From Calliopum simillimum (Eukaryota > Arthropoda > Insecta > Diptera > Lauxaniidae): DNA of 64,000 nt. The stretch lies in the NCBI GenBank assembly GCA_951812925.1, contig OX638370.1, forward strand, positions 105,848,897 to 105,912,896, in the 5' to 3' direction. Shown here piece by piece: positions 19,946 to 56,039 of the stretch. Every line of letters starts with the position of its first letter. Within the stretch, counting starts at the first letter, position 1. The notes beneath the pieces were generated by a model. That model saw only the letters and a list, made by a program, of their open reading frames with translations. It was not told where the DNA came from and made no database searches. The position numbers and the translations under genes are program-made.

Positions 19946-21300
19946 TGATGAAAATGAATAAATTTTTTTTTCAAGTTTAGAAATGTCTTTTAAGATCCGT
20001 TTTAGGAAAGACTTTCGACAAATAATTACTTTTTTCTTTCACAATAACTTTTAGGATCATCTGAGTTAAATGATGTGACTTTTTAAAAATAAATGTAGTC
20101 CAAGAGTCAATTAGCTTTATAGATTCACACAAATATTTCGCAATTGTTTTCATGGCCAAAAGAATATTATTTTTAAAATAAATTTCGTTTAAAATTCCGC
20201 TGAAAATTACTTTTGTGGAAATATATTGCAAATTAAACGGATTCCAAGCTTACGAGGATATTTGAGAATATTTTTGCACCAAAAAAAAAAAAAAAATACT
20301 TTGCATTCCGAATTATTTTGTTGTTGTTGTTGCACTGATTGGCTCAACTCAACAATCTGCACAAAAATGTTCGTTTATTTAAATTTACATTGCATTATTT
20401 ATTCTCTCTCTTCTATTTCATTTTCTTTCTCTATTTTCCAATCGCTAACACATTTTGTTTTTTGTAGTCTACTACTTTTCTCTGTGTAAGTGCAGCTCGC
20501 AGCGCTTTTTTTCTACTCCTTTTTGCATTTATTTTTTTCATACAAATTTCATTTGTTTATCCATGCAATGTAATAAGAGTGCAAAAAAAGTAAGGAAAAA
20601 TATTTTAAATGAAAATTGTTTTGAAAAAAGGAAAAACTTAAACAAAATGAAATGAAATAGAAATAATTTTACACTCAGCAAATAAAATGCATTTGCACAC
20701 AATGTGTTATGTATTTACATACACACACATACACACATCGTTGTTGTTAGTGTTGTTCAATTTGGCCTATTGGCTAAATGTGTAAATAACCATTGTGAAG
20801 TACAATTGATGGCCTATTTGGAAAAATAACCGAGAACGAAGAAAAACACCAATCAACAATTGCATTTTCAATAAAATCACAGCTGTAAAGTGCTGGAAAA
20901 CAATCAAAATGTTACAGAATAGTCGAGTGCTTTTATTAAATATCGATAAACTTTTGGTTCATTTTAGAATCCATATTAGCAGTGTAAGCGATTTCTTTTG
21001 GTTATATAGCAAAAACTTGTTCATAAGCAAATGAAACTAGTACGGCTGATATATCGGCATTTTCGCTAAAAGGTACACCATGATCAAAATATTAAAAGTT
21101 ACTAAAAAGTTTTAATTTTATGATATTATCCTAGAGAAACTTTTAAATTTTTCAAATTTAAGCAATTCACACATTAGTAAATTCATTAACCCTGCTGATC
21201 AAACTGACTCCAAAGTTGCACAAATGTAATGATAATTTTATATTGAACTAATTAAACAGTAATTTTTGCAATTTTTCAACAACAGACGAAAGCAAGTGTT
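19946..21300. other. AT-rich intergenic DNA
   Basis: The stretch contains GTT-rich microsatellite at 20,317-20,332 and CA-rich bases near 20,720-20,738. No supportable gene. Confidence 0.45.
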
Positions 21301-21311
21301 AACATGGAAAT

Positions 21312-21392
21312 TGATTACATATGTTTCGGCTACTTCCACATACATATTTATATATTTTCATATATAAACATGTATATAGCCTCATCAGATCA
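21312..21392 (-). ncRNA. Hammerhead ribozyme with extended stem II (copy 1)
   Basis: Read on the minus strand: stem I 5' strand UGAU (21,392-21,389); core CUGAUGA (21,388-21,382); stem II GGCUA (21,381-21,377) pairing with UAGCC (21,332-21,328), topped by a long AU-rich hairpin; GAAA (21,327-21,324); palindromic stem III ACAU/AUGU; A at 21,316 in the cleavage position, which is allowed since any base except G is tolerated; stem I 3' strand AUCA (21,315-21,312). Compared with the copy near 47.4 kb, stems I and II have different bases but remain paired, which is covariation supporting a real RNA fold. Confidence 0.8.
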
Positions 21393-21492
21393 GTTTTAGT
21401 TAAATCTTGCCAGAAACCGTACTCGAACCCGTGACTCCGGTTTTCTAATGAAAGAGAACGCGGTGCTTAAGCGATTGTGCTATAGGTCACGA
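21312..21492 (-). mobile_element. SINE-like element: tRNA-like head plus hammerhead
   Basis: On the minus strand a segment with Pol III-like signals precedes the ribozyme. It has an A-box-like TAGCACAATCGC near 21,480-21,469 and a good B box GGGTTCGAGTAC (21,430-21,419), about 30 nt before the CUGAUGA core. The layout (internal promoter, then hammerhead) recalls Schistosoma Sm-alpha-type SINE-like elements and animal retrozymes. The tRNA-like part lacks a clean cloverleaf, so it is not called a functional tRNA. Element ends are not defined. Confidence 0.55.
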
Positions 21493-22820
21493 GTAAACTC
21501 TCTGAAAAGGATCGCCATTATGAATAAATCATAAGGCTCACTAGCGCCGTCTGTTGTGTAGTTTTTATTTTTTAATAATTTTTAATTGGATGTGATTTTT
21601 TTCTAAAATCTTCATTAAGAGGCATAGTACATGATAACAGTTGTTTCAAAAGATCTCTTTTACAACATTGATGATATAAAACAAATAAAAAGAGAACATC
21701 GCATTCCCGAATAACTGTCAATTTTTTTGTTCTTTAGTCAAACTTCTACATTCCGGTTCGTCATTGAAAAAAATAATTTATCATCATTGCTTCACAAATC
21801 AAGTGCAAACCAAGCAGCAAGTGGGTCAAAAATTAAGTGTAAGTATAGCTTGTTACACCCAATTAAAAAAATAAAAAAATCTAAAGCAAAAAATAAAGCT
21901 ATTTGAAGTTGGTCACGTTCGTCACTTTTGGCTCAAAAGTTACGTATTTTTGAAATTTCATTCGACTGTAAAATTCTTAAACTACGTTTTGGATAAATCT
22001 TGTTATCCTAAGATCATACCTAATGAAATCATGCGAGGAAAATTTTCTAGGAATACATTAACCCATTATATACTGTTTTATGTTCTTTTTGAGACATTTT
22101 TCAAAAAGATTTTTTTATAATGGGTTGAAGTGTTCCGCAAAAATATTCTACGTAAAATTTCACTAGTGATCATCCTAAGCAAGAAATTCTTAGAACTTAA
22201 GAATAATGCATAAAGAAGTAATAAAAGTGTTCCACTTGTCAGATTAGCGAATTTCGCACTTACCATCAGAAAAGCGTGCAAGATTTTTTCTCTCCCAAAA
22301 CTGAATTTAGCTTAAAACAACCTCAGTAAATAAACTTAAAATACAGAAATATGCAAATTGTTACCCGATTGAATCATAATGAAAAAAATGTTACGTTCAT
22401 ATTATCACATATCGATTTGGATTATGATCAAAACAAAACAAAATACAGAAGATATTTGAATCAAATAAAATACATAAATAAGTAACATTATTGCATAAGA
22501 TTCTTAAATAAGTTGCACTAAAAAATTCTGACTTGTTTCGCTGAATTCTGACTTTCTTTGTATAGGCACAAAACTACTGCTATTTTTGTCACGTTCGTTT
22601 TGTGTCTGTTTTTGCGTGTATCTTGGAACCAGGACTTTGCCTTCTATTAACGTTTGCACTAATTATAGTGCTACATAAGAGCTATAATCTAAAGTAAAAA
22701 CTAAAATAAAAATATGTTTAACTTCCACCTTTTTTGCACTTTTAGTCTGTACGACGGTTACGTTCGCCATTTCGAAAATGTCCATATGTATTGTAAGTAT
22801 ATGGCGTGTCAAAAAAAGAA
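21493..22820. other. AT-rich intergenic DNA
   Basis: Only short, domain-free frames occur (for example 22,078-22,281 and 22,663-22,875, minus). Nothing recognised. Confidence 0.45.
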
Positions 22821-36925: not shown

Positions 36926-37430
36926 TTCACAATGATTTTTTATAAGGCTGCAGTAAGAACAACATGGGTTCGAACCCAGTCCGGGTGATTTTTGTTTTTA
37001 TTTTTGGTTTTGTTTTATTTTGCTTTATTTTTTTTTATAAAAATATTTTTTATTCAACATTTTCTATTTCACTTTTCTATATTCCTTTCTCTTTTTTATT
37101 TACTATTGCTCAATTGAATTGAAACTTATTACACAATGATTCTATGTAAGGCTGTAGGAGCAATTGAATGTCAAATTCTTTTTGGACAACATTTGTTTAA
37201 TATACAACTTTAATAACGCTTCATATCATTGGGCATTGGTGTAGCGGTCTAAAGGGTTGGTAAATGTAAGTAAAAATAATCCGTTTCTATCTATCACACG
37301 GACGGCCATGGGTTCAAATCATTCGTTTTTTTTTTAAATTTTATTGAGAAAACACTTACCGCAGCATTACAAATATACAAATAAGCGCTTCAAAATGCCT
37401 TTTTACGTAAGGCTGCGGTAAGTTTAAGGG
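36926..37430 (+). repeat. Repeat cluster with tRNA-like boxes and a 12-bp hairpin
   Basis: AATG(A/C)(T/C)T-TAAGGCTG(C/T) occurs at 36,931, 37,136 and 37,396. B-box-like GGGTTCGAACCC (36,966) and GGGTTCAAATC (37,310), with an A-box-like TGTAGCGGTCTAAAGGG at 37,240, suggest SINE-derived pieces. ACTTACCGCAGC (37,354-37,365) is perfectly complementary to GCTGCGGTAAGT (37,412-37,423). No complete tRNA fold could be drawn. Confidence 0.45.
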
Positions 37431-44754: not shown

Positions 44755-46130
44755 AAAAAAGCTAGTTGTCAACCCTAAAAATTATTTTTTCAATTTGCTG
44801 AAAGGTTATATAAGCGTTTCCTAAACTAAAAATTTGAATTTAGTTACAAAAAGTACGATTTTAACAAAATTTCAGAAAATAAATAGGTGGCAACCCTACA
44901 AATATTTTTTGGATTTTTCAAAAGATTGTCTAAGCGTTTTAGGACTAAAATTAAATTTTTATCTTGATATACAATGTAGTATATTAGGAGAGTCACCGGG
45001 TATGAGACACCTCCGGGTATGAGACATTCGATTTTTTCTATGATGCAAAACTAATGTTGCCAATCTGACTACTGTCGAACTGTCCTCTTGCTATGACCAT
45101 AATTCATGTTTTATATTTTTAAATTTTCATTGCATTTTTCTAGGTGTCTCATACCCGGATACAATTTTTTTTTTTGAAAAACTTGTACTTAAAAAATTGG
45201 CCATAACTTTTGCATGTGATAAAACTACTTTCTACTCCTTTCAAAAGAAAGTTGTGTGTATTTCCTGCCTTTCGAACGATATATAAAACACCTGAAACGG
45301 CTTAACCAGTAACAATTTATGGCTCAATAACAAAGCCCGTCTCATACCCGGAAACACTCCCTTACATATATGGTTTAAGCAAAATTTACAAAAACAAAAA
45401 AAAAAAATAAGTGGAAACCCTGAAAGCTTTGAACAATTTTTTAAAAGGTAATCTGAGCGTTTCCTAAGCTATAAACTTAAATTTAGTTTCAAAAAGTACG
45501 ATTTTAACAAAATTTCAAAAAATAACCAGGTTGTAGCCCTAAAAATATATGCTGCATTTTTAAAAAGTTGATCGAAGCTTTTTAAGGTTAACACTTTTTT
45601 TTTTTGATATACATGGATTAAGCAAAATTCACAAAAAAAAAAACCAGGTGGCAACCTTACGGTTTTTCAAAGTTTATCTGAGCGTTTCTGAAACCAAAAA
45701 TCTGAATTTAGTCACAAAAAGTATGATTTCAACTATATATATAAAAAAAATCAGGTGGCAACCCTAAAAATATATTTAAGGTTTTTAAAAAGTTTATCTA
45801 AGCGTTATAAGACTTAATTTTTTTTTTGAAATATATGGCTTAAGCAAAATTACCAATAAAAAAAAAACAGGTGGCAACACTGAAAGTTTTTGAACAATTT
45901 TTAAAAAGTTTATCTGAGCGTTTCTTTATCCAAAAATTTTAATTTGGTCACAGAAAGTATGACTTTAACATAATTTTTTAAAATAACAATGTGGCAACCC
46001 TAAATGTATGTTAGATTTTAAAAAAGTTTATCGAAGAGCTTTTAGACCAAAGTTTATTTTTTTTTTTAAATTAAAAAGTTCAATTTAACCATAACGAAAA
46101 TAACAACGGTTGGCAGCCCTGAAAGATTAA
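44755..46130 (-). repeat. Tandem array of 117-bp units forming about 235-bp dimers
   Basis: (G)GTGGCAACCCT-type motifs occur at 44,887, 45,411, 45,528, 45,648, 45,754, 45,870, 45,990 and 46,109. From 45,411 on the spacing is 106-120 bp. Units alternate between a version followed by CTGAAAG...TTATCTGAGCGTTTC and one followed by CTAAAAAT...CTAAGCGTTTTAAGAC. The same unit occurs in opposite orientation in the repeats at 15.66-15.9 and 38.04 kb. A MITE interrupts it at 44,987-45,361. Confidence 0.8.
44987..45361. mobile_element. MITE inserted in the 117-bp array, 375 bp
   Basis: The left end GGAGAGTCACCGGGTATGAGAC resembles the complement of the right end GTCTCATACCCGGAAACACTCC. CCGGGTATGAGAC is repeated at 45,013, and CTCATACCCGG recurs at 45,149. 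Both flanks carry TTA. Bases on the two sides (CTTGATATAC and ATATATGGTTTAAGCAAAA) rejoin to match uninterrupted units near 45,600, which shows a nested insertion. Confidence 0.7.
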
Positions 46131-46515: not shown

Positions 46516-47420
46516 AAACTTTCATCTGGAAACACTGGCAATGCATAATAATAAATAAAAATGATTAAGTTTCTTCCCACTGTACACTATTTTAAGAAAA
46601 TAAAGAACAAAAACAACAGAAATCGCGTCACAGAAGGCTTAAGCGCGCACGAAAAGGCATTAGCACAAGGAAGGAAAACTTGACGTCGACCACAGTGGGA
46701 GGTGGGATTTCAGGAGTAAAACTTTCTAAATCACTATTTTGAAATCTGAACACAAACAGCGGCAACTACTGTGCGTATGCAACAACAACAACAAAACTGA
46801 AGAAAGAAAACATACGCAACATTCCGGCAGCAACTGCTGCAGCTGCTTTTGCGTTGATTGAAAAATGCAGCGGCCCCAAAGGCGAATTTCTCCGTTTGTT
46901 TGTGCACTTAAATTGAATGAGATTTCCGTTGATTGAGATTGGCACACGCTTACAGTCGCACATATGCTTATGTACACAATTACACTCAAATACTTTATGC
47001 GTAGGAAACGCAGTTGTGCGCTTTTTTGCGTTCTCTGTCCTTTTTGCATCTTTCGTTCGCTTAAAAATCATTTTGACCAATTGCTTTGCGCTTCGCCAGA
47101 TAACTTGTTGACTTAGATTCTCGACTTTGTTGCCAAGCTTAATTTTAAAAAATTAGTGAGGTGGGATAGGTCGAGAATAGATTTTGGACATGACCAGGGG
47201 TGTCTCCGACCCCTCTAAGTGACCGATTGATAAAACTTTTATATAAAAACTTTTAAGAATTTTTAAGTGTATAACTTAATGACATTTTATATATAGAAAA
47301 TTGATTTTTTAATTGAACTTTTAGTCATATATTTGCAAAGATCGACTTACATATAAATCTATCAATGCATTTTTTCTAACACATAATTATGACAAATCAA
47401 GGAACGGATTAAAAACACGG
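46516..47420. other. Intergenic DNA downstream of the serpin gene
   Basis: Two overlapping minus-strand frames at 46,726-47,080 have no conserved domain and carry simple-sequence (CAA)n-derived residues. Not supported as genes. Confidence 0.4.
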
Positions 47421-47600
47421 CTATAGTGACATATGTTTCGTCTTTCGCCACAAAGACTCATCAGACTATTTTTGTTGTAATTATAATTATATTTATTTTA
47501 CTAAATTAATTATAATTGAAAAATTGCAAGTTTGAAAACTTTTTGTGTTTTTTGGCCTGGGCGTGAGTCGAACCAAGGAACTCGCGGTTTTAATTGTTTT
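47421..47600 (-). mobile_element. Second SINE-like hammerhead element, degraded head
   Basis: This is the same arrangement as the 21.3-kb copy. A B-box-like GGTTCGACTC (47,574-47,565, minus strand) and neighbouring bases align with the tRNA-like head of copy 1, followed by an AT-rich insert of about 90 bp and then the hammerhead. The A-box side is not recognisable. The ribozyme is better preserved than the head. Confidence 0.5.
47423..47469 (-). ncRNA. Hammerhead ribozyme, type I topology (copy 2)
   Basis: Read on the minus strand: stem I 5' strand AUAGU (47,469-47,465); core CUGAUGA (47,464-47,458); stem II GUCUUU with loop GUGGCG and AAAGAC (47,457-47,440); GAAA (47,439-47,436), whose last A starts stem III; palindromic stem III ACAU/AUGU; the unpaired C at 47,428; then stem I 3' strand ACUAU (47,427-47,423). 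All paired positions are Watson-Crick. Cleavage is predicted between 47,428 and 47,427. The very short stem III is typical of hammerheads in metazoan SINE-like and retrozyme elements, which are thought to work best as dimers. Hammerheads are known to self-cleave RNA at the NUH site; activity of this copy is inference. Confidence 0.85.
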
Positions 47601-48412
47601 ATTTTTTTTATTATATATATTTATATTCTTAAAAAAATATTGTATTAATTTTTTTTGTTTATCTTATTTAGTAACAAAAAACATATCTTTTTATATATGT
47701 AAATGTTGCGATAGTTTTTGAGTTAATAACTTAAATTTATACATTCACTGTTGTTGCAATTTCAAAATTTAACACAAAATAGTTTAAAATTAAAAATTTC
47801 AATTTCAATCAAGAGCAATAAACATATTTATTGTGAATGAAAATAATAAGTAGTTGTATATGATATATGCAGAAGTATATCAAATAAAAGTTAAGCCTAT
47901 TGCTGCGCATCAATCCTGAATCATTCTAAGAATGAACGAATTCAAGTTCCAGATCATTCCAGAGATACGTGATTAAGGCACAGCAAAAAGTCATCATATA
48001 ATCTATATAGATATGTAGATAGAAATTAAAAATAATTAAGGACTAATTAAAAATTCACTAAGTATGACGCTTGACATGGATGCATACGTCGTTCGCCAAC
48101 ATTTTGCTTTTGCTGAAAATTTAATAAAAAAAAAACATTACTAATTCCTCTTAAGTATAAGAAACTTTCGAATTCGAAAAAAAAATCGTTGTCTTAATCA
48201 ATAGTTTTGGGTTTCACGATATTTTCGTTGTGAACTCACAAAATTTATAGATTGCGAATTTTTTGCCTACAAAGAAACCGAACACGAAATGTTTTGTGAG
48301 TTTTCTTAATTGTTGGTTTGTATAAATTCACAGTTAGTATTGTTAAATTCAAAAAAAAAATATAAGTATCTATTTCAAATTTTTAATCAGCTATTTCGAA
48401 CTGTTGCGTAGC
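47601..48412 (-). other. Probable 3' flank and UTR of the serpin gene
   Basis: AT-rich DNA immediately downstream of the stop codon, without other features apart from candidate poly(A) hexamers. Confidence 0.4.
47827..47832 (-). terminator. Candidate poly(A) signal AATAAA for the serpin gene
   Basis: AATAAA on the minus strand, about 580 nt downstream of the stop codon. A weaker ATTAAA variant lies nearer at 48,120-48,125. In such AT-rich DNA these hexamers occur often by chance, so the true 3' end is undetermined. Confidence 0.25.
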
Positions 48413-51400
48413 TCATGGCAAAAGGCGTGGATTAAATCGTCCCATAAACAATATCATGCCAGTTGGATTGTGACGCACAAAGTACAGGAATGGTTTATCG
48501 AAACGTAATCTCGGTGAGTCCGGCACACGTGCCTGTCGCGGACGCAATGGCAATGGCAATTCCAAGTACTTTGGATCTAGCAAATCATCATAGAAACCAC
48601 GACCTAATGCCGACTCCTGTACTATCGAACCAAAATCAATAATCGCCTCTGATGAATCAAATTCATCATCTTCGTTGGCATCAACATCCTTATTACGCTT
48701 GCGTAATGGCGGCGCTGGATACATCTCCACATGATGATGGTCCGAAATTTTCTCTTCACCACATGTGCTAAATGTATTTATTTGTATCATATCGGAGAGA
48801 TAAATATCACGATTCGAGGAACCCGTCAGTCCACGTAAATCGGCCAAGTCTGATTTGAAGAGACCCTTTAGACCCATTTTCTGCAGTCCCAGCGATGCGT
48901 TGACAAATGAACGATGTGAGAATCTTGGCAGCTGCACTTCCATTTCGGGACGATCCATAAGTGATGTCAATATGTTGCTCCAAGCATTTTCACTGCTAAA
49001 GGCTAACTCAGCAAGCTGCTTCTCCAAACGATCTAAATTATCTGTTGGTGATACAGAACTCTGATGTCCAGGCATAACGTAGATTGTGCTAACCGTATCT
49101 TCTATGCGTCCAAATGCCACAACGGTAGCGTCTAATTTTGGCTCATAGCCTGCCGTGAAACCATTCTTATACAACACTGCTGGTATAGGTATCAAACGTC
49201 GTTGTCTTACCGATGGATGTACCTGGAAGAACATTTCACCATCGCGATCTTGCGTCGAACCACGTGAGCAGTCTGTTTGGAAAAGATTTGCTGAAATTGT
49301 TGCAAGCGGCCCATTTACCCAAACGCTATTGGTGCGTAAGTATTCCAATACTTTGCCCATTGTATGACGTTTCACAAGCAGATTCGTGCGTCGTCTTATG
49401 ATGTCATTGACAACATGGAAGTTGACTTCTTCAACGTGTCCCGCATAAAGTTGCTGTGTCTTCTCTTTGAAGAATTGCAGTATCTTACCATTAGCGCGAT
49501 CGCTAAAGATTTCACGCACAAATGCGGTCGTTGCTATATCGCTGTCGGTTGCTTTTTCGACAGATTCAGTTATATTCTTAAAGACCAGATGTGGATTAAA
49601 TGTGACCATATCATCAAGTTTGAGCACTTCATTCATTTCGCCCGAAGTACCACCGCGTGCTCCCAAGAAGACCATGGAGAGCATAGAGGTGAGTGCAAAT
49701 GGCGATATGATCAAACTACGCGCTGAGCTAATTTTCTCCGATGTAATTGATTTCCAATAGCTGAATGCCAACTCATTGCAAAGTTTGGCAAATTGAAGCA
49801 CATCTTCATCTAAGTTGGCGATCGAAGCCTCTAAGCCCTTTGAATCCTCTGGACTGGCTTCCAACTTTACAGGTGGACGTGTTGCTTGCGTTGAAGTGTG
49901 CATGAGGTTGCTTAATGCAGCTGGGCGATGCATAGGCCGTTGTTGTTGTGGTGGCATCGCTCCGGGCAAACTGGCAGCTGTATACGTTGTGACCTTAGGT
50001 GGTTGTTCTGCTTGGTTGTAAGCGGTGAATGCAGGTTGCTTATAATATGAGACGGGCTTCAACGTATTAAAACGTTTTGTGGTCGATACTGTTGTGGGCC
50101 GTGGTGTTGTGGTCTTTTTAGTGATTGGCCTTGATGTTGTTGTAGTTGTGGATGGAATAGTGCTGCTAGCTGGAGCTTGATATGTTGATTGGTCATCTTC
50201 ATCTTCTTCATCTACTTCGTCATTAGTTTGGCCATAACTAAGCACAGGCATTATAGCTTGCTGATGTCCATTTACATTGGTAACATAATTATTTTGCAAG
50301 TGTTCTGGTTGTTTTACTTGCGCTTCAATGGGCTTAAGTAGTTCTGGCAAGTTGTATAGTGGCTTTTCTTTTTTATGGTCTTCTTCTTTTGTTTCTGTTA
50401 CTGCTGCAATTTTCTTGTTGATCTCTCCCAATTTAATGTAGGGATCCTCTGGTACCACTGTTTCTTCCGCCTCTTCTGCTGATAATGTTGCATATAGTTC
50501 ATCTGCAGTCTCATTGCTTAGCTCTGTGCTATGCGCATATTTTTCAGTGGCAGTTTCGGTATTTTCAATATTTTGCTCGGAACTTTCAACCATATCAGAA
50601 TCAGTATACACTGCTGGAGTTTCGCTGGAAATTTCTGTAGATTCTGGTATATCTTGCGACGGACTTGATGCGTAAGCTTCAGTTACTCCATCAGTTTCCG
50701 CAGTTTCGTATTGTGTACTTGGATTCGCTGCATACTCTGGCTGCGGTTGCGCTGCATTAGTAATGCTGTCATATTCAATGGTTGGCTGTTTTTCGCTTGG
50801 TTTTCCATTAAAATTACTCGTTTCATGTATCGTTGCATAAGTTTTCTGATCTGTTTGTAACTTCTCCGTGTAGTTTTCCTCAGTCGATTCAGTTTTTAGT
50901 GCTTCTTTTTCATTAATCATTGTGGCATAGCCCGACTCAGTTGATTGTTTCTCTGTGGACGCTTCTTCGCTTTGATTTATCATTGTTGCATAGTGCTGTT
51001 CGTTGGAATCCTTTTCTGTGTTCTGTTCTTGCCCATTAATCAGCTCTGCATATGTTACCTTTGCGGGTTTAGGCGCTGGAGTGATCGCCACGATGGAGTC
51101 GTTCTCAGTAGCACTCTCATTATCATAGACTGGCGCAGTTTCAGTGGATTCTTTTTCCAAACTTGTTTTCTCGGAACTTTCAACCTCACCACTTACTTCT
51201 TCGGTAACTTCGCGCTCATCGCTTGTCTCGTAACTATTGGTCATGGTGGCAGTCAATCCATCATCTTCTTCCTCTTTCAATGTAGTAGGAGCATTCTCAG
51301 TTGGTTTGTTACTGTCCGGATTTTGTGATGCCTGTATAGGTACTAACTTTTCACGTTCAGCCTCAAAAAGTGCTCCACTAACTTCCTCGTCTTGCTGTTG

Positions 51401-54400
51401 CTGGGCGTATATTTGCGAAAGTGATAGCAGCGGTACTTTAAAGGTGGTTGTCTCTACAAACTCCTCAGGATAAATGGGCGCGCCTGTTGTTTTCTCAAGT
51501 AATTGTTGCTGTACCAAGCTCAAGTATGCTTCTTCCTTTTTGATTATCTCCTCTTTGCTTGGTATTATGGTGGTTGTATCTGGTGCTACTGGTTTTGGCT
51601 TGAAAATTAACTCAGGTATTTTAATGACAGGCATGGGTTTATAAATGGGATCAGGTTTATCCTTATCAATTATAGCTAACGCTGGTATTTTGGTATTTGT
51701 TATGGCTGCATAAGTGGGATCTGGTTTGTCTTTATCGGAGTTTGTTATTCCGGGTTTCTCAGGTACAATTGGATCTGCGACATACACGGGTTTTGATGTA
51801 GATGGTGCCTTTATAACTGTAACGGGTTGATAAATTGATTCCATTTTTTCGACGTCCTTTGTAAACTGCGCGGGAGAACCATAAGTTGTGGACTTTGTAG
51901 TACTCTCTATAGCAACTGTAGAAGCAGTGTCACTGTAAGTAGACACTACAGCTGCTGGCTGCTGTTTCTGTGCATTAGGATTATGTGTTGGCTTCTTCAG
52001 TAGGAATGAGGAATTGAGTTGTGCAAAGTTTGTTAGACGATTTGTATTCTCTAGCACCGGCTGAATTTTGTAACTTTCTTCATGGTTCGTTATTTGCTGG
52101 ATCACATCATTCATTAAGAAAGTCAATTCATCTTTTGTTTCGTTGGAACTCATAAAGCTATCGGCAGCGAAAGTATTTGTGCCATCAACAAGTGTTGACG
52201 CAACGGTCGCGGCTTGTGTCTGGAATTCGGACATTGGGATTTGTTCGGTTGGTTTCAGTACCGAAAGATTCAGGTGCGGTTTCAAATTTGCTACCATTGG
52301 TTGCTGCTCAGTAGTTTCATACCCAACTGCAACCAGCATCACTGGAAGTCGTGGCATGCCAATTTCCTGAACGTTAGTTGCGCTCTCTGTGGACAATTCA
52401 GTGATACTTGCTTCATCATCGCTGTAATTGCTTAAAGGCGTTGGTACCTCAGTGGTGATTTCACTCACCACCGGATCTTGTATGTCTGCATACAATGGTT
52501 GGAAGTTTGTGACAGCAGCTGCTGTCTCAGGTTCTTTCAACGTTGTTGGGTTGTTAGTGGCATCTTTTTCTGCTTCTTCCTTCTCCTTTATTGTTGTATC
52601 CTTCAATTGGTCATAAGGTGGAATACCTGTAGTTTCTGATATATGTGGTAGTGCCATTGTTGTTGGTACATAGTCAGTCTGCTGTGTTGTTATTAAATAT
52701 TGTGGACGTGCTGTGATGAGCACAACAGGCGTATTCAATTCTTCACTCGATGTAATTGTGGTATCTTCAGTACTGCTGGAGTCTGTGGACCATGATTGTG
52801 TAAATGGACGACTAGTCATAGCTTCAGTAGATTCTTCTGACAGCATGGTACTTAACGTGCTGCCACCGTAGTGTGCAGTTGATGGCACCATTGTTGTTGC
52901 CACCGCAAAGTGTGGCGCTACGGAATTCAAAAGCACTGGTTTCTTCTTCTTATGGACGATTTCTTCCAGCTTATCTATAGTTTCAGCGCTATCATATTTT
53001 GTTGGCATTATTGTGGGGATCTTGTTATTGGTTTCCTTATGTTCAAGTACTTCTTGACCAGCTTTTTCTAAATCTTTATTATCACTCTGCTGTAGACTTA
53101 GCATTATTTGATCGAAAGAAAGTTTTGTATTTTGATCCTCATCGACTGGACGTTGGGAATCTGTTTGCGTCTGATATGTCGATTGAGGTGAGTTCGCTGA
53201 TTGTTGTGGTTTCTGCTCTGTTTGATGAGTTGGAGGCTGTGCTGTTGCTTTTGAAGGTTTGGGTATCTCTGGCACTTGATATTGCGGTTGTTGCGTAGGC
53301 TTTTGAGTTTCTGCTTGCATTGTATACGTTGTTTGCGGTGGTTTCTGTACTTCAGGCTGCAGTTCTGGTTGTTCTGAATATGCTGGCTGTTTTGGCGGTT
53401 GCTTCGTGCTTACTACTGGTAAACGATGTGTCTGCTCGTATACAGGCTTCAATGGTTTTGCTTGCTGTTGTATCTGTGATAAAGTTGGCAGTGGATTCTT
53501 CTTAAGATGTATTGCATCTAAGTCTTCTGAGATATAATCGGAAGTTGGTTCCACTTGTTGAAGGCTAGAATCATAAGAGGGAACTGGATAAGCTGGCGAA
53601 GGTGCTGTTGAGTAGGATGCAGCATTTGAAAATGTACTACTCTGGTCCGATGAGTAATTTGGAGCATTAATGACAATTAATGGGGTTTCTGTTGTTGTGC
53701 TTGTTGCTGTTGTAGGTCGTGGACGTTGCTTGTGATGATTCACATGCGTATATTGCTGTGCAGCTTCCTGTTGCACTGTGGATGCTGCCTCGGTATCTTG
53801 TGCTGGACGATGTTTATTGTGATGCTGCGGTTGTTCTTCCTGTTGTTGCTGTGGCGCATGTGTTGGTTTTGGTCTTGGACCTGGCTTGCGACCAGGTTTG
53901 TGACCAGGCTGACGTGTGGGCTTCTTCTTTTTCTTTGGCGGTGTTGTGGAAAGAATAGGCACTGCTGTTGTTGGCGCGGGCGTTGTTGTAGTTGGTGGTG
54001 CTGGTGTGGTTGTAGTTGTAGTTGTTGTGGTTGTTGTTGTTGTTGTCGTAGTTGTGGGCTCCGTTGTAGTTGTTGGCTCCTGTGTTGTTGTTGCTGGTGC
54101 AGCCGTAGTCTTCTTTTTCAATTTTTGTTTATTATGTCCTCCTGCTGTACCCGGTCGCTTTGAGGTGTGCCCTTGCCCTCCATTATTCGGTGTCTTATTG
54201 CGATGTGGTAGCGTATGTTTGGTGTTAATACCTGCGGGTTTCTTTGCAAAGTTCTCAGTTAATTCAGTTGTAGGTGATCGCACCGTTGTCGTTGCTGGAC
54301 GCATTTCGCTGGTAGTTTGAATCATTTCTTGATTATTCACAAATACACGACGTGTTGTTGTTTCTGCAGCCGGCGCTTCCGTTGGTAGCTTATGATAAAT

Positions 54401-55148
54401 AGGTTGCATATTCATTGCCGAGAAAGCATTAAAGTTTTGTATATTCGAGGCAAGACTTTGATACTGCTGTTGGCCTGTGTAAACCGACTCATTCGGTTCC
54501 AGCTCCTCTTGCACTTGTTGTGGTGTAGGCAGTGCCGTTGTGCTGGTGGTAGTTGTTTTTCGTTTTTGTCCTGGCTTACGCTTGGATGGTTTTGGTTTTT
54601 TGGTGGCTTTCGTTGTTTGTGGTGTTGATTTCGTTGAAGTTTCAAGTACATCTGAATCCGGTGTCATGACAATTTGTTGTGGTTTCTGTTGCGGGAAAAT
54701 ATCACCACCTGTATTACCAAAAATGGCCGGTAAGATCATTGACCATGAAGAGGATACGTCTGGTGTATCAAGTTGTGGCATGGGCGTTTCGACACTGGCA
54801 TTCTTCGTTGATTCAACTTCTTTATTCAACACACTCTGTACGCTATTGACGATGTCTTGAACATTTTTCTCTGGATCACGTTCATCGACTGGTGCTGTGT
54901 GAATTATGGATGGTCCCTCACCATCACCGTTGGCAACAATGCTTTGTATTTCTTGCATGGTCATTAGACGCTTAATAAGTTCGCCATTGTCGTCGAATGT
55001 GTAGAACTCGTAGCGATCTGGATTGAGCAGATTTATTGGGCTGGCAACCTGCAGTGAGGGTTGCGGTTTTGGTACCTTGTGACCGAGTGCATCGGTAAAT
55101 TGTGGTGGTTCGTTGCCATTCAGTATGACTGAGACAGAAGTGACGACA
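48413..55148 (-). CDS. Very long mucin-like protein with C-terminal serpin domain
   Basis: A single open frame ends at a TGA at 48,413-48,415. It can be read back to an ATG at 55,321 (2,302 residues; numbering here uses that ATG). Residues about 230-490 carry Lys/Pro patches and a run of 17 Thr near 414-440, followed by a KKKKKP/GHKPGRKPG basic segment. Residues about 500-1,800 are rich in Gln, Pro, Thr, Glu and Ser, with YATMIN-like repeats near 1,420-1,510. Residues from about 1,833 match a serpin: SLIISPFALTSMLSMVFLGARG (helix B region), IYLSDMIQINTF (strand 5A region) and FDKPFLYFVRHNPTGMILFMGR at the C terminus. The protein is probably secreted and O-glycosylated. The serpin hinge is missing, so protease inhibition is doubtful. 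I prefer an exon start at 55,148 because a strong splice acceptor lies there. An alternative is unspliced translation from Met24, whose next 30 residues are hydrophobic like a signal peptide. I do not recognise the exact orthologue. Confidence 0.9.
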
Positions 55149-55180
55149 CTGTAAAGAAAAATGTGGAAAAATGTTAAAAA
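55149..55180 (-). promoter_or_regulatory. Probable 3' splice acceptor of the serpin gene
   Basis: On the minus strand the sequence reads through a pyrimidine-rich tract to TTTCTTTACAG, with the AG at 55,150-55,149. A TTTTAAC sequence resembling a branch point lies about 22 nt upstream. The AG splits codon 58 of the open frame, so the exon would begin in phase 2 at GTC GTC ACT TCT. The sequence just upstream is AT-rich and includes a homopolymer, as expected of an intron. I looked for an upstream exon with a suitable donor as far as 64,000 and found none I could support. Confidence 0.55.
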
Positions 55181-55321
55181 ATGAATTGCGGAAAATGTGA
55201 AGATTGATAAAAAATATTTTGGAAGCCATATCTTGCAATGCAGCTGTTGCATTGCCAGCAATTTACAAGGAGTTTTTTGTGTATTTTTTTTTTTTTTTGG
55301 CCAACTACTCGTAGCTTTCAT

Positions 55322-56039
55322 GTTGGGATAACTAATGGTTTCTATTACAACTCATCGATTTTTGTGTGGCAATGCAGCAGGGTGTTAAAAAAATTTTAGA
55401 TGCAAATTGGGAATATAAACGAAGGTCATGCAACTTTGAAGCTTTTGAACTATCTCTCTTTGCTCATAATGTCGCTTAGTGAAGGAAGAACTTAACGTTG
55501 TCACTAAGTTTTGTGTTAATTTTCAACTATCATTTAACAAATGCTCCCATTTTTTGATATACCCTGAGACTCATAGCAATAGAAAAGCTGAAGAAAAGGA
55601 AAATCCATTTACAAAACGCTGTTGCATGTACTATAAAGTACATACAATATGTTGCAGACACAGCACAAATCTGTTCAGGGTTTTTAGTTAGGTTAATGCA
55701 GGAAAGTTCAATCATTAGTTATGAAATCTGTTGCATAGCATTCAGCAGGAATTCCGTATGATAGCAAGATACTTGCAACTCAGTGTAAAAAAAGTCAAAT
55801 AAACCTGCTTGCAAAGCAAATCTCTGCTAAGGGGTGCACGAAAAAAGAAATTCAGAAAATTCAAAGAAAAATCAGTGCAAAATACGCCATATCATTGCAC
55901 ACTATTAAAGATTTCTCTCCTGCAACTATGTACATACAATAATAAAATACATATTGGTTTTCACTCCTAAGTTGATGACAGAAGAAGAAGTAGCCTAAGT
56001 TGTATGTTTTAGCAATGGTTTTGAACTTAGAGTTTTTCT
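55322..56039. other. 5' flank or intron of the serpin gene
   Basis: If the acceptor at 55,149 is real, this and possibly much of the sequence to the right is intronic on the minus strand. No exon recognised. Confidence 0.4.

What the first reader, a model, noticed from the sequence alone, without database searches (positions are those of the whole stretch)
47423..47469. Intact minimal hammerhead ribozyme on the minus strand
Every conserved core base (CUGAUGA, GAAA, C at the cleavage site) is present in the right order between three perfectly paired stems in only 47 nt. The palindromic stem III ACAU/AUGU suggests activity as a dimer or in a tandem transcript. I cannot tell whether this fly family has been described.
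Basis: partly seen in the sequence, partly recalled or inferred. Interest (0 to 1): 0.9.

Follow-up and report, generated by a model that had tools for sequence, protein, structure and literature searches.

The report
Two type I hammerhead ribozymes, fly
A fly genome carries two related copies, about 26 kb apart, of a small motif that looks like a self-cleaving RNA of a widespread kind often carried by mobile elements, so the finding is real but of a largely known sort.

Summary
Minus strand 47469-47423 is a complete type I hammerhead (HHR1): every core base, stem I 5 bp, stem II 6 bp, stem III of two pairs with a palindromic AUAU loop, site GUC. Insert cut out, they align without gaps, 33 of 47 identical, four base pairs changed on both sides. 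Shuffled windows hold 0.05 such motifs (0.005 with a short loop III) against two seen. No Rfam model reaches its gathering score, nor in four viral contigs where the same descriptor finds hammerheads, so that test is uninformative. A two-pair stem III with a tetraloop is called similar to invertebrate hammerheads in PMC7229834. No tandem copies, supported target-site duplications or Penelope proteins were found near the sites. A B-box-like sequence precedes both copies, a weak hint of a Pol III-driven SINE. The search of the window's own genome did not complete, so copy number is unknown. New member of a known kind.

The parts
47465..47469 (-). HHR1 stem I, 5' arm AUAGU
47458..47464 (-). HHR1 core CUGAUGA
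47440..47457 (-). HHR1 stem II GUCUUU / AAAGAC with loop GUGGCG
   Evidence: forms in the MFE fold
47437..47439 (-). HHR1 core GAA (its fourth A is the first base of stem III)
47429..47436 (-). HHR1 stem III ACAUAUGU: two pairs with AUAU loop in the monomer, 8-bp palindrome between two molecules
47428..47428 (-). HHR1 C17; predicted cleavage between 47428 and 47427
   Evidence: position rule recalled from the hammerhead literature
47423..47427 (-). HHR1 stem I, 3' arm ACUAU
21312..21392 (-). HHR2: second type I hammerhead, same core and stem III, stem I UGAU/AUCA, stem II GGCUA/UAGCC, H17 = A at 21316
21341..21376 (-). 36-nt AT-rich, largely self-complementary insert in loop II of HHR2 (border chosen by eye)
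21419..21482 (-). tRNA-like A box (21471-21482) and B box (21419-21429), the B box ending 26 nt before HHR2; weak
   Evidence: 0.33 such pairs expected per shuffled window, 60 shuffles; 2 seen in the whole window, this being one; no tRNA found
47564..47574 (-). B-box-like GGTTCGACTCA ending 94 nt before HHR1; no A box found
48413..55351 (-). 2312-codon stop-to-stop frame ending in a serpin domain; its end lies about 940 nt upstream of HHR1 on the same strand

Best explanation
HHR1 and HHR2 are two diverged genomic copies of one family of type I hammerhead ribozymes, dispersed by a small non-autonomous retroelement of the metazoan (non-LTR) retrozyme or Penelope-related kind. A transcript of the minus strand folds into three helices around the conserved core and cuts itself after C17 (HHR1, GUC) or A17 (HHR2, GUA), leaving 2',3'-cyclic phosphate and 5'-OH ends; in active source copies such ends would let a host RNA ligase close a small RNA circle that is copied back into the genome. 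Shown: complete core, paired stems, two copies alike beyond the core, pair changes compensated. Inferred: catalysis, transcription, circle formation, mobility. HHR1 looks fit to cleave alone; HHR2 is probably slower (shorter stem I, GUA site, long loop II insert).
For: Core bases and stems present in both. Two motifs against 0.0475 expected with the loose descriptor and 0.005 with a short loop III (400 shuffles), 0.0067 for 300 permuted cores. Used on the 13 fetched loci, the loose descriptor finds motifs in 6 (11 in all) and none in the other 7, which include the five loci that matched the bare pattern, so it does discriminate. CTGATGAG occurs twice in the window, both strands together (0.77 expected), and both times CGAAACATATGT follows. 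Insert removed, 33 of 47 positions identical, including five loop II letters TGTGG; 4 of 12 pairs changed on both sides, 95.8% of 24 cells paired against 20-46% for slid partners. A two-pair stem III with a tetraloop is called similar to invertebrate hammerheads, and retrozyme-like type I repeats are reported in insects (PMC7229834, passages and section 13).
Against: No Rfam match at gathering score; below it RF00008 (type III model) at 24.2 bits, E 0.0049, and RF03152 (RAGATH-1 hammerhead) at 16 bits, E 3.3; no hammerhead model for HHR2 up to E 10. The bare core order is not rare by chance. A model built from both copies gives HHR2 only 19 bits over its 3' part, no better than loci L001, L002 and L005 that match the bare pattern without proper stems (20, 19, 21.7 bits). 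No tandem repeat around either copy; 11-nt direct repeats within 200 nt on either side are no better than chance (194 and 200 of 200 block shuffles do as well). Downstream flanks do not align (100 of 300 shuffles reach the score). Pfam on 20 stop-free minus-strand frames found no reverse transcriptase or GIY-YIG domain. The covariation rests on two sequences and an insert border that I chose; 31 of 500 shuffles reach four double changes and 12 of 500 the pairing.
Confidence: 0.75

Rival explanations
1. The hammerheads sit in a tRNA-derived, Pol III-transcribed SINE: A and B boxes upstream drive transcription straight into the ribozyme, which trims the 3' end and allows circles to form. (A sharper form of the best explanation; the odds overlap.)
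For: GTTCGA lies 20-150 nt upstream of both motifs; 1.85% of minus-strand positions have this, so 3.4e-4 for both, a post hoc figure. The upstream regions align as AAAACCG-GAG-TC...GGTTCGA-T-ACG; 12 of 300 shuffles reach the score. HHR2 has an A box 53 nt before its B box and no run of four T from the A box to 21200. A SINE-like type I hammerhead family, SMalpha, is known in Schistosoma (PMC8490949, passages).
Against: No tRNA by ARAGORN with its bacterial setting or by Rfam up to E 10 in the stretches searched. 0.33 A+B pairs expected per shuffled window and 2 seen in all. HHR1 has no A box, two T runs lie between its B box and the ribozyme, and the spacing differs (94 against 26 nt). No supported target-site duplications.
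Confidence: 0.15
2. HHR1 is a relic of a Penelope-like element's terminal repeat, where minimal type I hammerheads are known. (Overlaps with the best explanation.)
For: Minimal type I hammerheads are reported in Penelope-like elements (PMC7229834, introduction passage; PMC11167929, passages).
Against: No RT or GIY-YIG match in 20 stop-free minus-strand frames of 61-128 aa near the two sites; short or badly decayed pieces could be missed.
Confidence: 0.2
3. HHR1 has a host role: it lies in or just past the 3' UTR of a serpin gene and cuts its mRNA, as proposed for amniote hammerheads in mRNA biogenesis.
For: Same strand, about 940 nt after the stop codon at 48413; the serpin domain is well supported. 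A role in mRNA biogenesis for a few amniote hammerheads is cited in PMC7229834 (introduction passage).
Against: AATAAA at 47832, 47612, 47603 and 47497, and two ATTAAA further up, precede it, so the mRNA may end before it; no gene was identified next to HHR2; no conservation test was possible.
Confidence: 0.05
4. Chance resemblance in AT-rich DNA.
For: No Rfam hit at gathering score; the bare core order has one match in 13 of 100 shuffles; exact-pattern scans of very large collections find matches without proper stems (L001-L005).
Against: Two motifs with three stems against 0.0475 (loose) or 0.005 (short loop III) expected and 0.0067 for permuted cores, with identical stem III and compensated stems.
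Confidence: 0.04

Closest known systems
Metazoan non-LTR retrozymes with type I hammerheads (PMC7229834; abstract, section 13 and passages seen)
   Same: Type I topology, stem III of two pairs with a tetraloop, low GC, more than one copy; reported in insects among other phyla.
   Different: No tandem repeat of 150-450 bp and no supported target-site duplication found here; circles and expression untested.
Penelope-like element hammerheads (PMC11167929, passages; Cervera and de la Pena 2014 and Lunse et al. 2017 seen only as citations inside other papers, or recalled; neither is held)
   Same: Minimal hammerhead with a short stem III, possible dimer action (recalled from Lunse et al.).
   Different: No Penelope RT or GIY-YIG remains found near either copy.
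Dipteran type III hammerheads (Drosophila pseudoobscura, Rhagoletis zephyria, Musca domestica, Hermetia illucens; PMC7936874, section 10 and passages)
   Same: Hammerheads in fly genomes.
   Different: Those are type III with large helices I and II; here stems II and III are closed and stem I is open (type I).
Aedes aegypti interspersed-repeat hammerheads (PMC3088659, passages)
   Same: Dipteran, interspersed, loop III can pair fully in a dimer.
   Different: Sequences not compared; the alignments are in a supplement that I did not open (look-ups in supplements were capped at zero).
SMalpha SINE-like elements of Schistosoma mansoni (PMC8490949, passages)
   Same: Type I hammerhead in a SINE-like element.
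   Different: The tRNA-like head is only weakly supported here.

Membership tests
Hammerhead ribozyme | Core CUGANGA, GAAA and NUH before the cleavage site, between three helices | tested here: met
   for both copies (HHR1 GUC, HHR2 GUA)
Hammerhead ribozyme | Match to a curated covariance model | tested here: not met
   0 matches at gathering score in the window. Control: four viral contigs in which the descriptor finds hammerheads also give 0, and 0 at E 0.5, so this feature does not discriminate; it is a tool threshold, not a property of the ribozyme
Hammerhead ribozyme | Self-cleavage in Mg2+ | not testable with these tools
   needs the bench
Type I hammerhead | Open end in stem I, stems II and III closed by loops | tested here: met
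Type I hammerhead | Loop II contact with an internal loop of stem I | tested here: inconclusive
   the best outer stem I helices, 4 and 5 bp, are as good as chance (981 and 468 of 1000 block shuffles); the contact itself was not modelled
Metazoan non-LTR retrozyme | Repeats of 150-450 bp in tandem or multiple copies | tested here: inconclusive
   two dispersed copies in the window, no tandem seen near them; the search of the genome did not complete (ten calls from 10 to 85)
Metazoan non-LTR retrozyme | Target-site duplications, when present | tested here: inconclusive
   best 11-nt direct repeats within 200 nt no better than shuffles; other lengths and wider flanks not tested, and they are not always present
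Metazoan non-LTR retrozyme | Circular RNA in tissue | not testable with these tools
   needs RNA data
Penelope-like element | RT and GIY-YIG reading frame next to the hammerhead | tested here: not met
   20 stop-free minus-strand frames near the sites, no such Pfam match; frames under 61 aa and decayed pieces not tested
tRNA-derived SINE | tRNA-like head with A and B boxes | tested here: inconclusive
   both boxes at HHR2, B box only at HHR1; no tRNA found

The most novel reading that the evidence does not exclude
A fly SINE family built from a tRNA-like Pol III promoter joined to a self-cleaving hammerhead, so that the element carries its own promoter and its own RNA-processing ribozyme; [quoted passage not shown]
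Probability: 0.15. Interest if true: 0.6.

Novelty: new member of a known kind. Interest (0 to 1): 0.36.

Why it matters
It adds an apparently intact type I hammerhead family to a fly, where the papers that I could read name type III forms in several fly species and interspersed copies in Aedes. Two copies with compensated stems suggest that the source elements kept a working ribozyme. If copies elsewhere share the tRNA-like head, it would bear on how such elements get transcribed.

Tried and rejected
Type III reading of HHR1: the Rfam type III model aligns at 24.2 bits but has to pair AT-rich flanks with mismatches; the type I closure has perfect stems, so type I was kept. Target-site duplications: near-identical 11-mers flank HHR1 at a spacing of 176 nt and a 10-nt inverted repeat flanks HHR2; the former is no better than chance and the latter is reached by 12 of 200 block shuffles. 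Further copies: a covariance model from the two copies, run on the window without filters, gives HHR1 (68 bits, a training sequence), the 3' part of HHR2 (19 bits, also training) and then 13.7 bits, E 0.27. Relatives in public collections: one viral-contig and four genome-contig loci match the exact pattern; none of the five passes the descriptor, and the four genome records are titled as bacteria. A pattern with TGTGG gave eight viral-contig loci, of which six pass the descriptor (L006, L008, L009, L010, L011, L013); TGTGG was asked for, so the shared loop is no evidence of kinship. Shared flanks: a BLAST of 1.6 kb against 1.8 kb around the two copies gave only short low-scoring matches. Penelope proteins: none; three Pfam matches below their cut-offs (NttE, TraF, Cauli_AT, best E 0.014) look irrelevant. 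Extended outer stem I: not better than chance. Literature, open-licence library only and judged from capped listings: no hammerhead-bearing tRNA-derived SINE in insects among the listed papers (20 of 98 listed; 1 of 1; 6 of 6); no tephritid hammerhead among those (25 of 3,389; 15 of 2,589), where the one Bactrocera paper with the word (PMC4956098) has it only in a reference title; on fly hammerheads PMC7936874 (15 of 338; 1 of 1). In some searches I guessed a tephritid; the protein search supports only a fly near Drosophila, Ceratitis and Teleopsis.

Full report
What was checked. On the minus strand, 47469-47423 reads AUAGU-CUGAUGA-GUCUUU(GUGGCG)AAAGAC-GAA-ACAUAUGU-C-ACUAU. It has the conserved core bases of a hammerhead with a 5-bp stem I, a 6-bp stem II and a stem III of two pairs capped by AUAU.

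A second copy. A descriptor scan of both strands (CUGANGA, stem II of 4 or more pairs, GAAA, stem III of 2 or more pairs with A-U first, H17, stem I of 4 or more pairs) found two motifs (it printed three rows because the second motif also closes in a longer way). The second, HHR2, is at 21392-21312 on the same strand. It has the same core, the same ACAUAUGU, stem II GGCUA/UAGCC, stem I UGAU/AUCA and H17 = A. Its loop II holds a 36-nt AT-rich, largely self-complementary insert. CTGATGAG occurs twice in the window on both strands together (0.77 expected), and both times CGAAACATATGT follows.

Chance. The bare order of the core is weak evidence: one match, 0.14 expected, 13 of 100 shuffles with at least one. 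With stems and loop III up to about 57 nt, 400 dinucleotide shuffles gave a mean of 0.0475 motifs; 18 had at least one and 1 had two. With loop III held short, a limit set after both motifs were known, the mean was 0.005, 2 of 400 had one and none had two. On the real window, 300 permuted cores with the short limit gave a mean of 0.0067, 2 with one and none with two. The true core gives two. On the 13 loci fetched from public collections the loose descriptor finds 11 motifs in 6 viral contigs and none in 7 loci, five of which matched the bare core pattern.

Likeness and pairing. With the insert cut out, the two copies align over 47 columns without a gap, 33 identical. Of 12 pairs, 4 are changed on both sides, 7 are unchanged and 1 (outermost of stem I in HHR2) is unpaired; 95.8% of cells pair, against 20-46% with slid partners. 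In the shuffle control 12 of 500 reach the pairing and 31 of 500 the double changes, so with two sequences this is support, not proof. The insert border was my choice.

Rfam and own model. The window has no match at gathering score. In a 301-base stretch HHR1 matches RF00008 at 24.2 bits, E 0.0049, cut-off 48.5, and RF03152 at 16 bits, E 3.3. HHR2 is matched by no hammerhead model up to E 10. As a control, four of the eight viral contigs, all four passing the descriptor, were searched: none matched at gathering score or at E 0.5. So the lack of a curated match says little; these control motifs are themselves unproven. A model built from the two copies gives HHR1 68 bits and HHR2 19 bits over its 3' part only, the insert breaking the match, with nothing else under E 0.27. 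On the fetched loci it gives 21.6-27.3 bits to the six that pass the descriptor, but also 19-21.7 bits to L001, L002 and L005, which have no proper stems; its score alone does not separate them.

Folding. For HHR2 the core stretch alone forms stem II only; with 10 nt more on each side stem I forms too. The co-fold of two HHR1 strands pairs the whole ACAUAUGU over 8 bp, though helices I and II drawn there are not those of the hammerhead.

Surroundings. HHR1 lies about 940 nt beyond the stop codon of a long frame with a serpin domain, on the same strand. The last 666 residues of that frame have their best named relatives in Drosophila, Ceratitis and Teleopsis (82-91% identity in the five best of 87 hits over 58-83% of the query), so the host is a fly of that breadth; the family is not fixed. 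Poly(A) signals precede HHR1. No reverse transcriptase or GIY-YIG domain was found in 20 stop-free minus-strand frames, of 54 frames of 55 aa or more listed on both strands in three stretches near the sites.

A possible promoter. GTTCGA lies upstream of both motifs, and HHR2 has an A box 53 nt before its B box. The two upstream regions align with a score reached by 12 of 300 shuffles; a narrower comparison chosen after seeing it, by 6 of 500. Against this, no tRNA was found, A+B pairs are expected at 0.33 per shuffled window with 2 seen in all, and HHR1 lacks an A box and has T runs before the ribozyme. I give this reading 0.15.

Known relatives. PMC7229834 (abstract, section 13, passages) describes type I hammerheads in retrozyme repeats of 150-450 bp in animals, with retrozyme-like repeats in insects among others, and calls a stem III of two pairs with a tetraloop similar to invertebrate hammerheads; that is the form here. 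It also says that amphibian ones with a shorter helix III work better as dimers. PMC7936874 (section 10, passages) names type III hammerheads in Drosophila pseudoobscura and, as work in preparation, in Rhagoletis, Musca and Hermetia. PMC3088659 (passages) reports Aedes copies in interspersed repeats and a possible dimer. PMC8490949 (passages) cites a SINE-like hammerhead family in Schistosoma. PMC7761336 (passages) says that retrozymes do not seem to carry promoters.

Verdict. Very probably a genuine hammerhead family with two copies in the window, most likely carried by a small non-autonomous retroelement. Cleavage, expression and mobility remain untested. The kind is known; whether this member has been described could not be settled, because no insect DNA collection was at hand and the genome search did not complete.

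Noticed in passing
window 21279-21288 and 21548-21557: Perfect 10-nt inverted repeat bounding a 279-bp stretch that holds the tRNA-like boxes and HHR2; 12 of 200 block shuffles match it.
   Followed up: partly
window 47395-47405 and 47571-47581: Near-identical 11-mers (10 of 11) 176 nt apart flanking HHR1, the upstream one overlapping the B box; no better than chance.
   Followed up: partly
window 48413-55351, minus strand: Uninterrupted 2312-codon frame: a long Thr/Pro/Gln-rich part, mucin-like to the eye, ahead of a serpin domain; only its last 666 residues were searched, with relatives in many insects.
   Followed up: partly
window 45365-46063: Diverged direct repeats with spacings near 225-240 and 107-120 nt (families D1, D2, D4).
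   Followed up: no
L006, L008, L009, L010, L011, L013 (IMG/VR contigs): Eleven hammerhead-like motifs with three closed or pairable stems, two in each contig but L011; Rfam calls none in the four contigs searched, L006, L008, L011 and L013.
   Followed up: partly
window 36966-36977: GGTTCGAACCC, a palindromic B-box-like sequence on both strands, with no hammerhead found near it.
   Followed up: no
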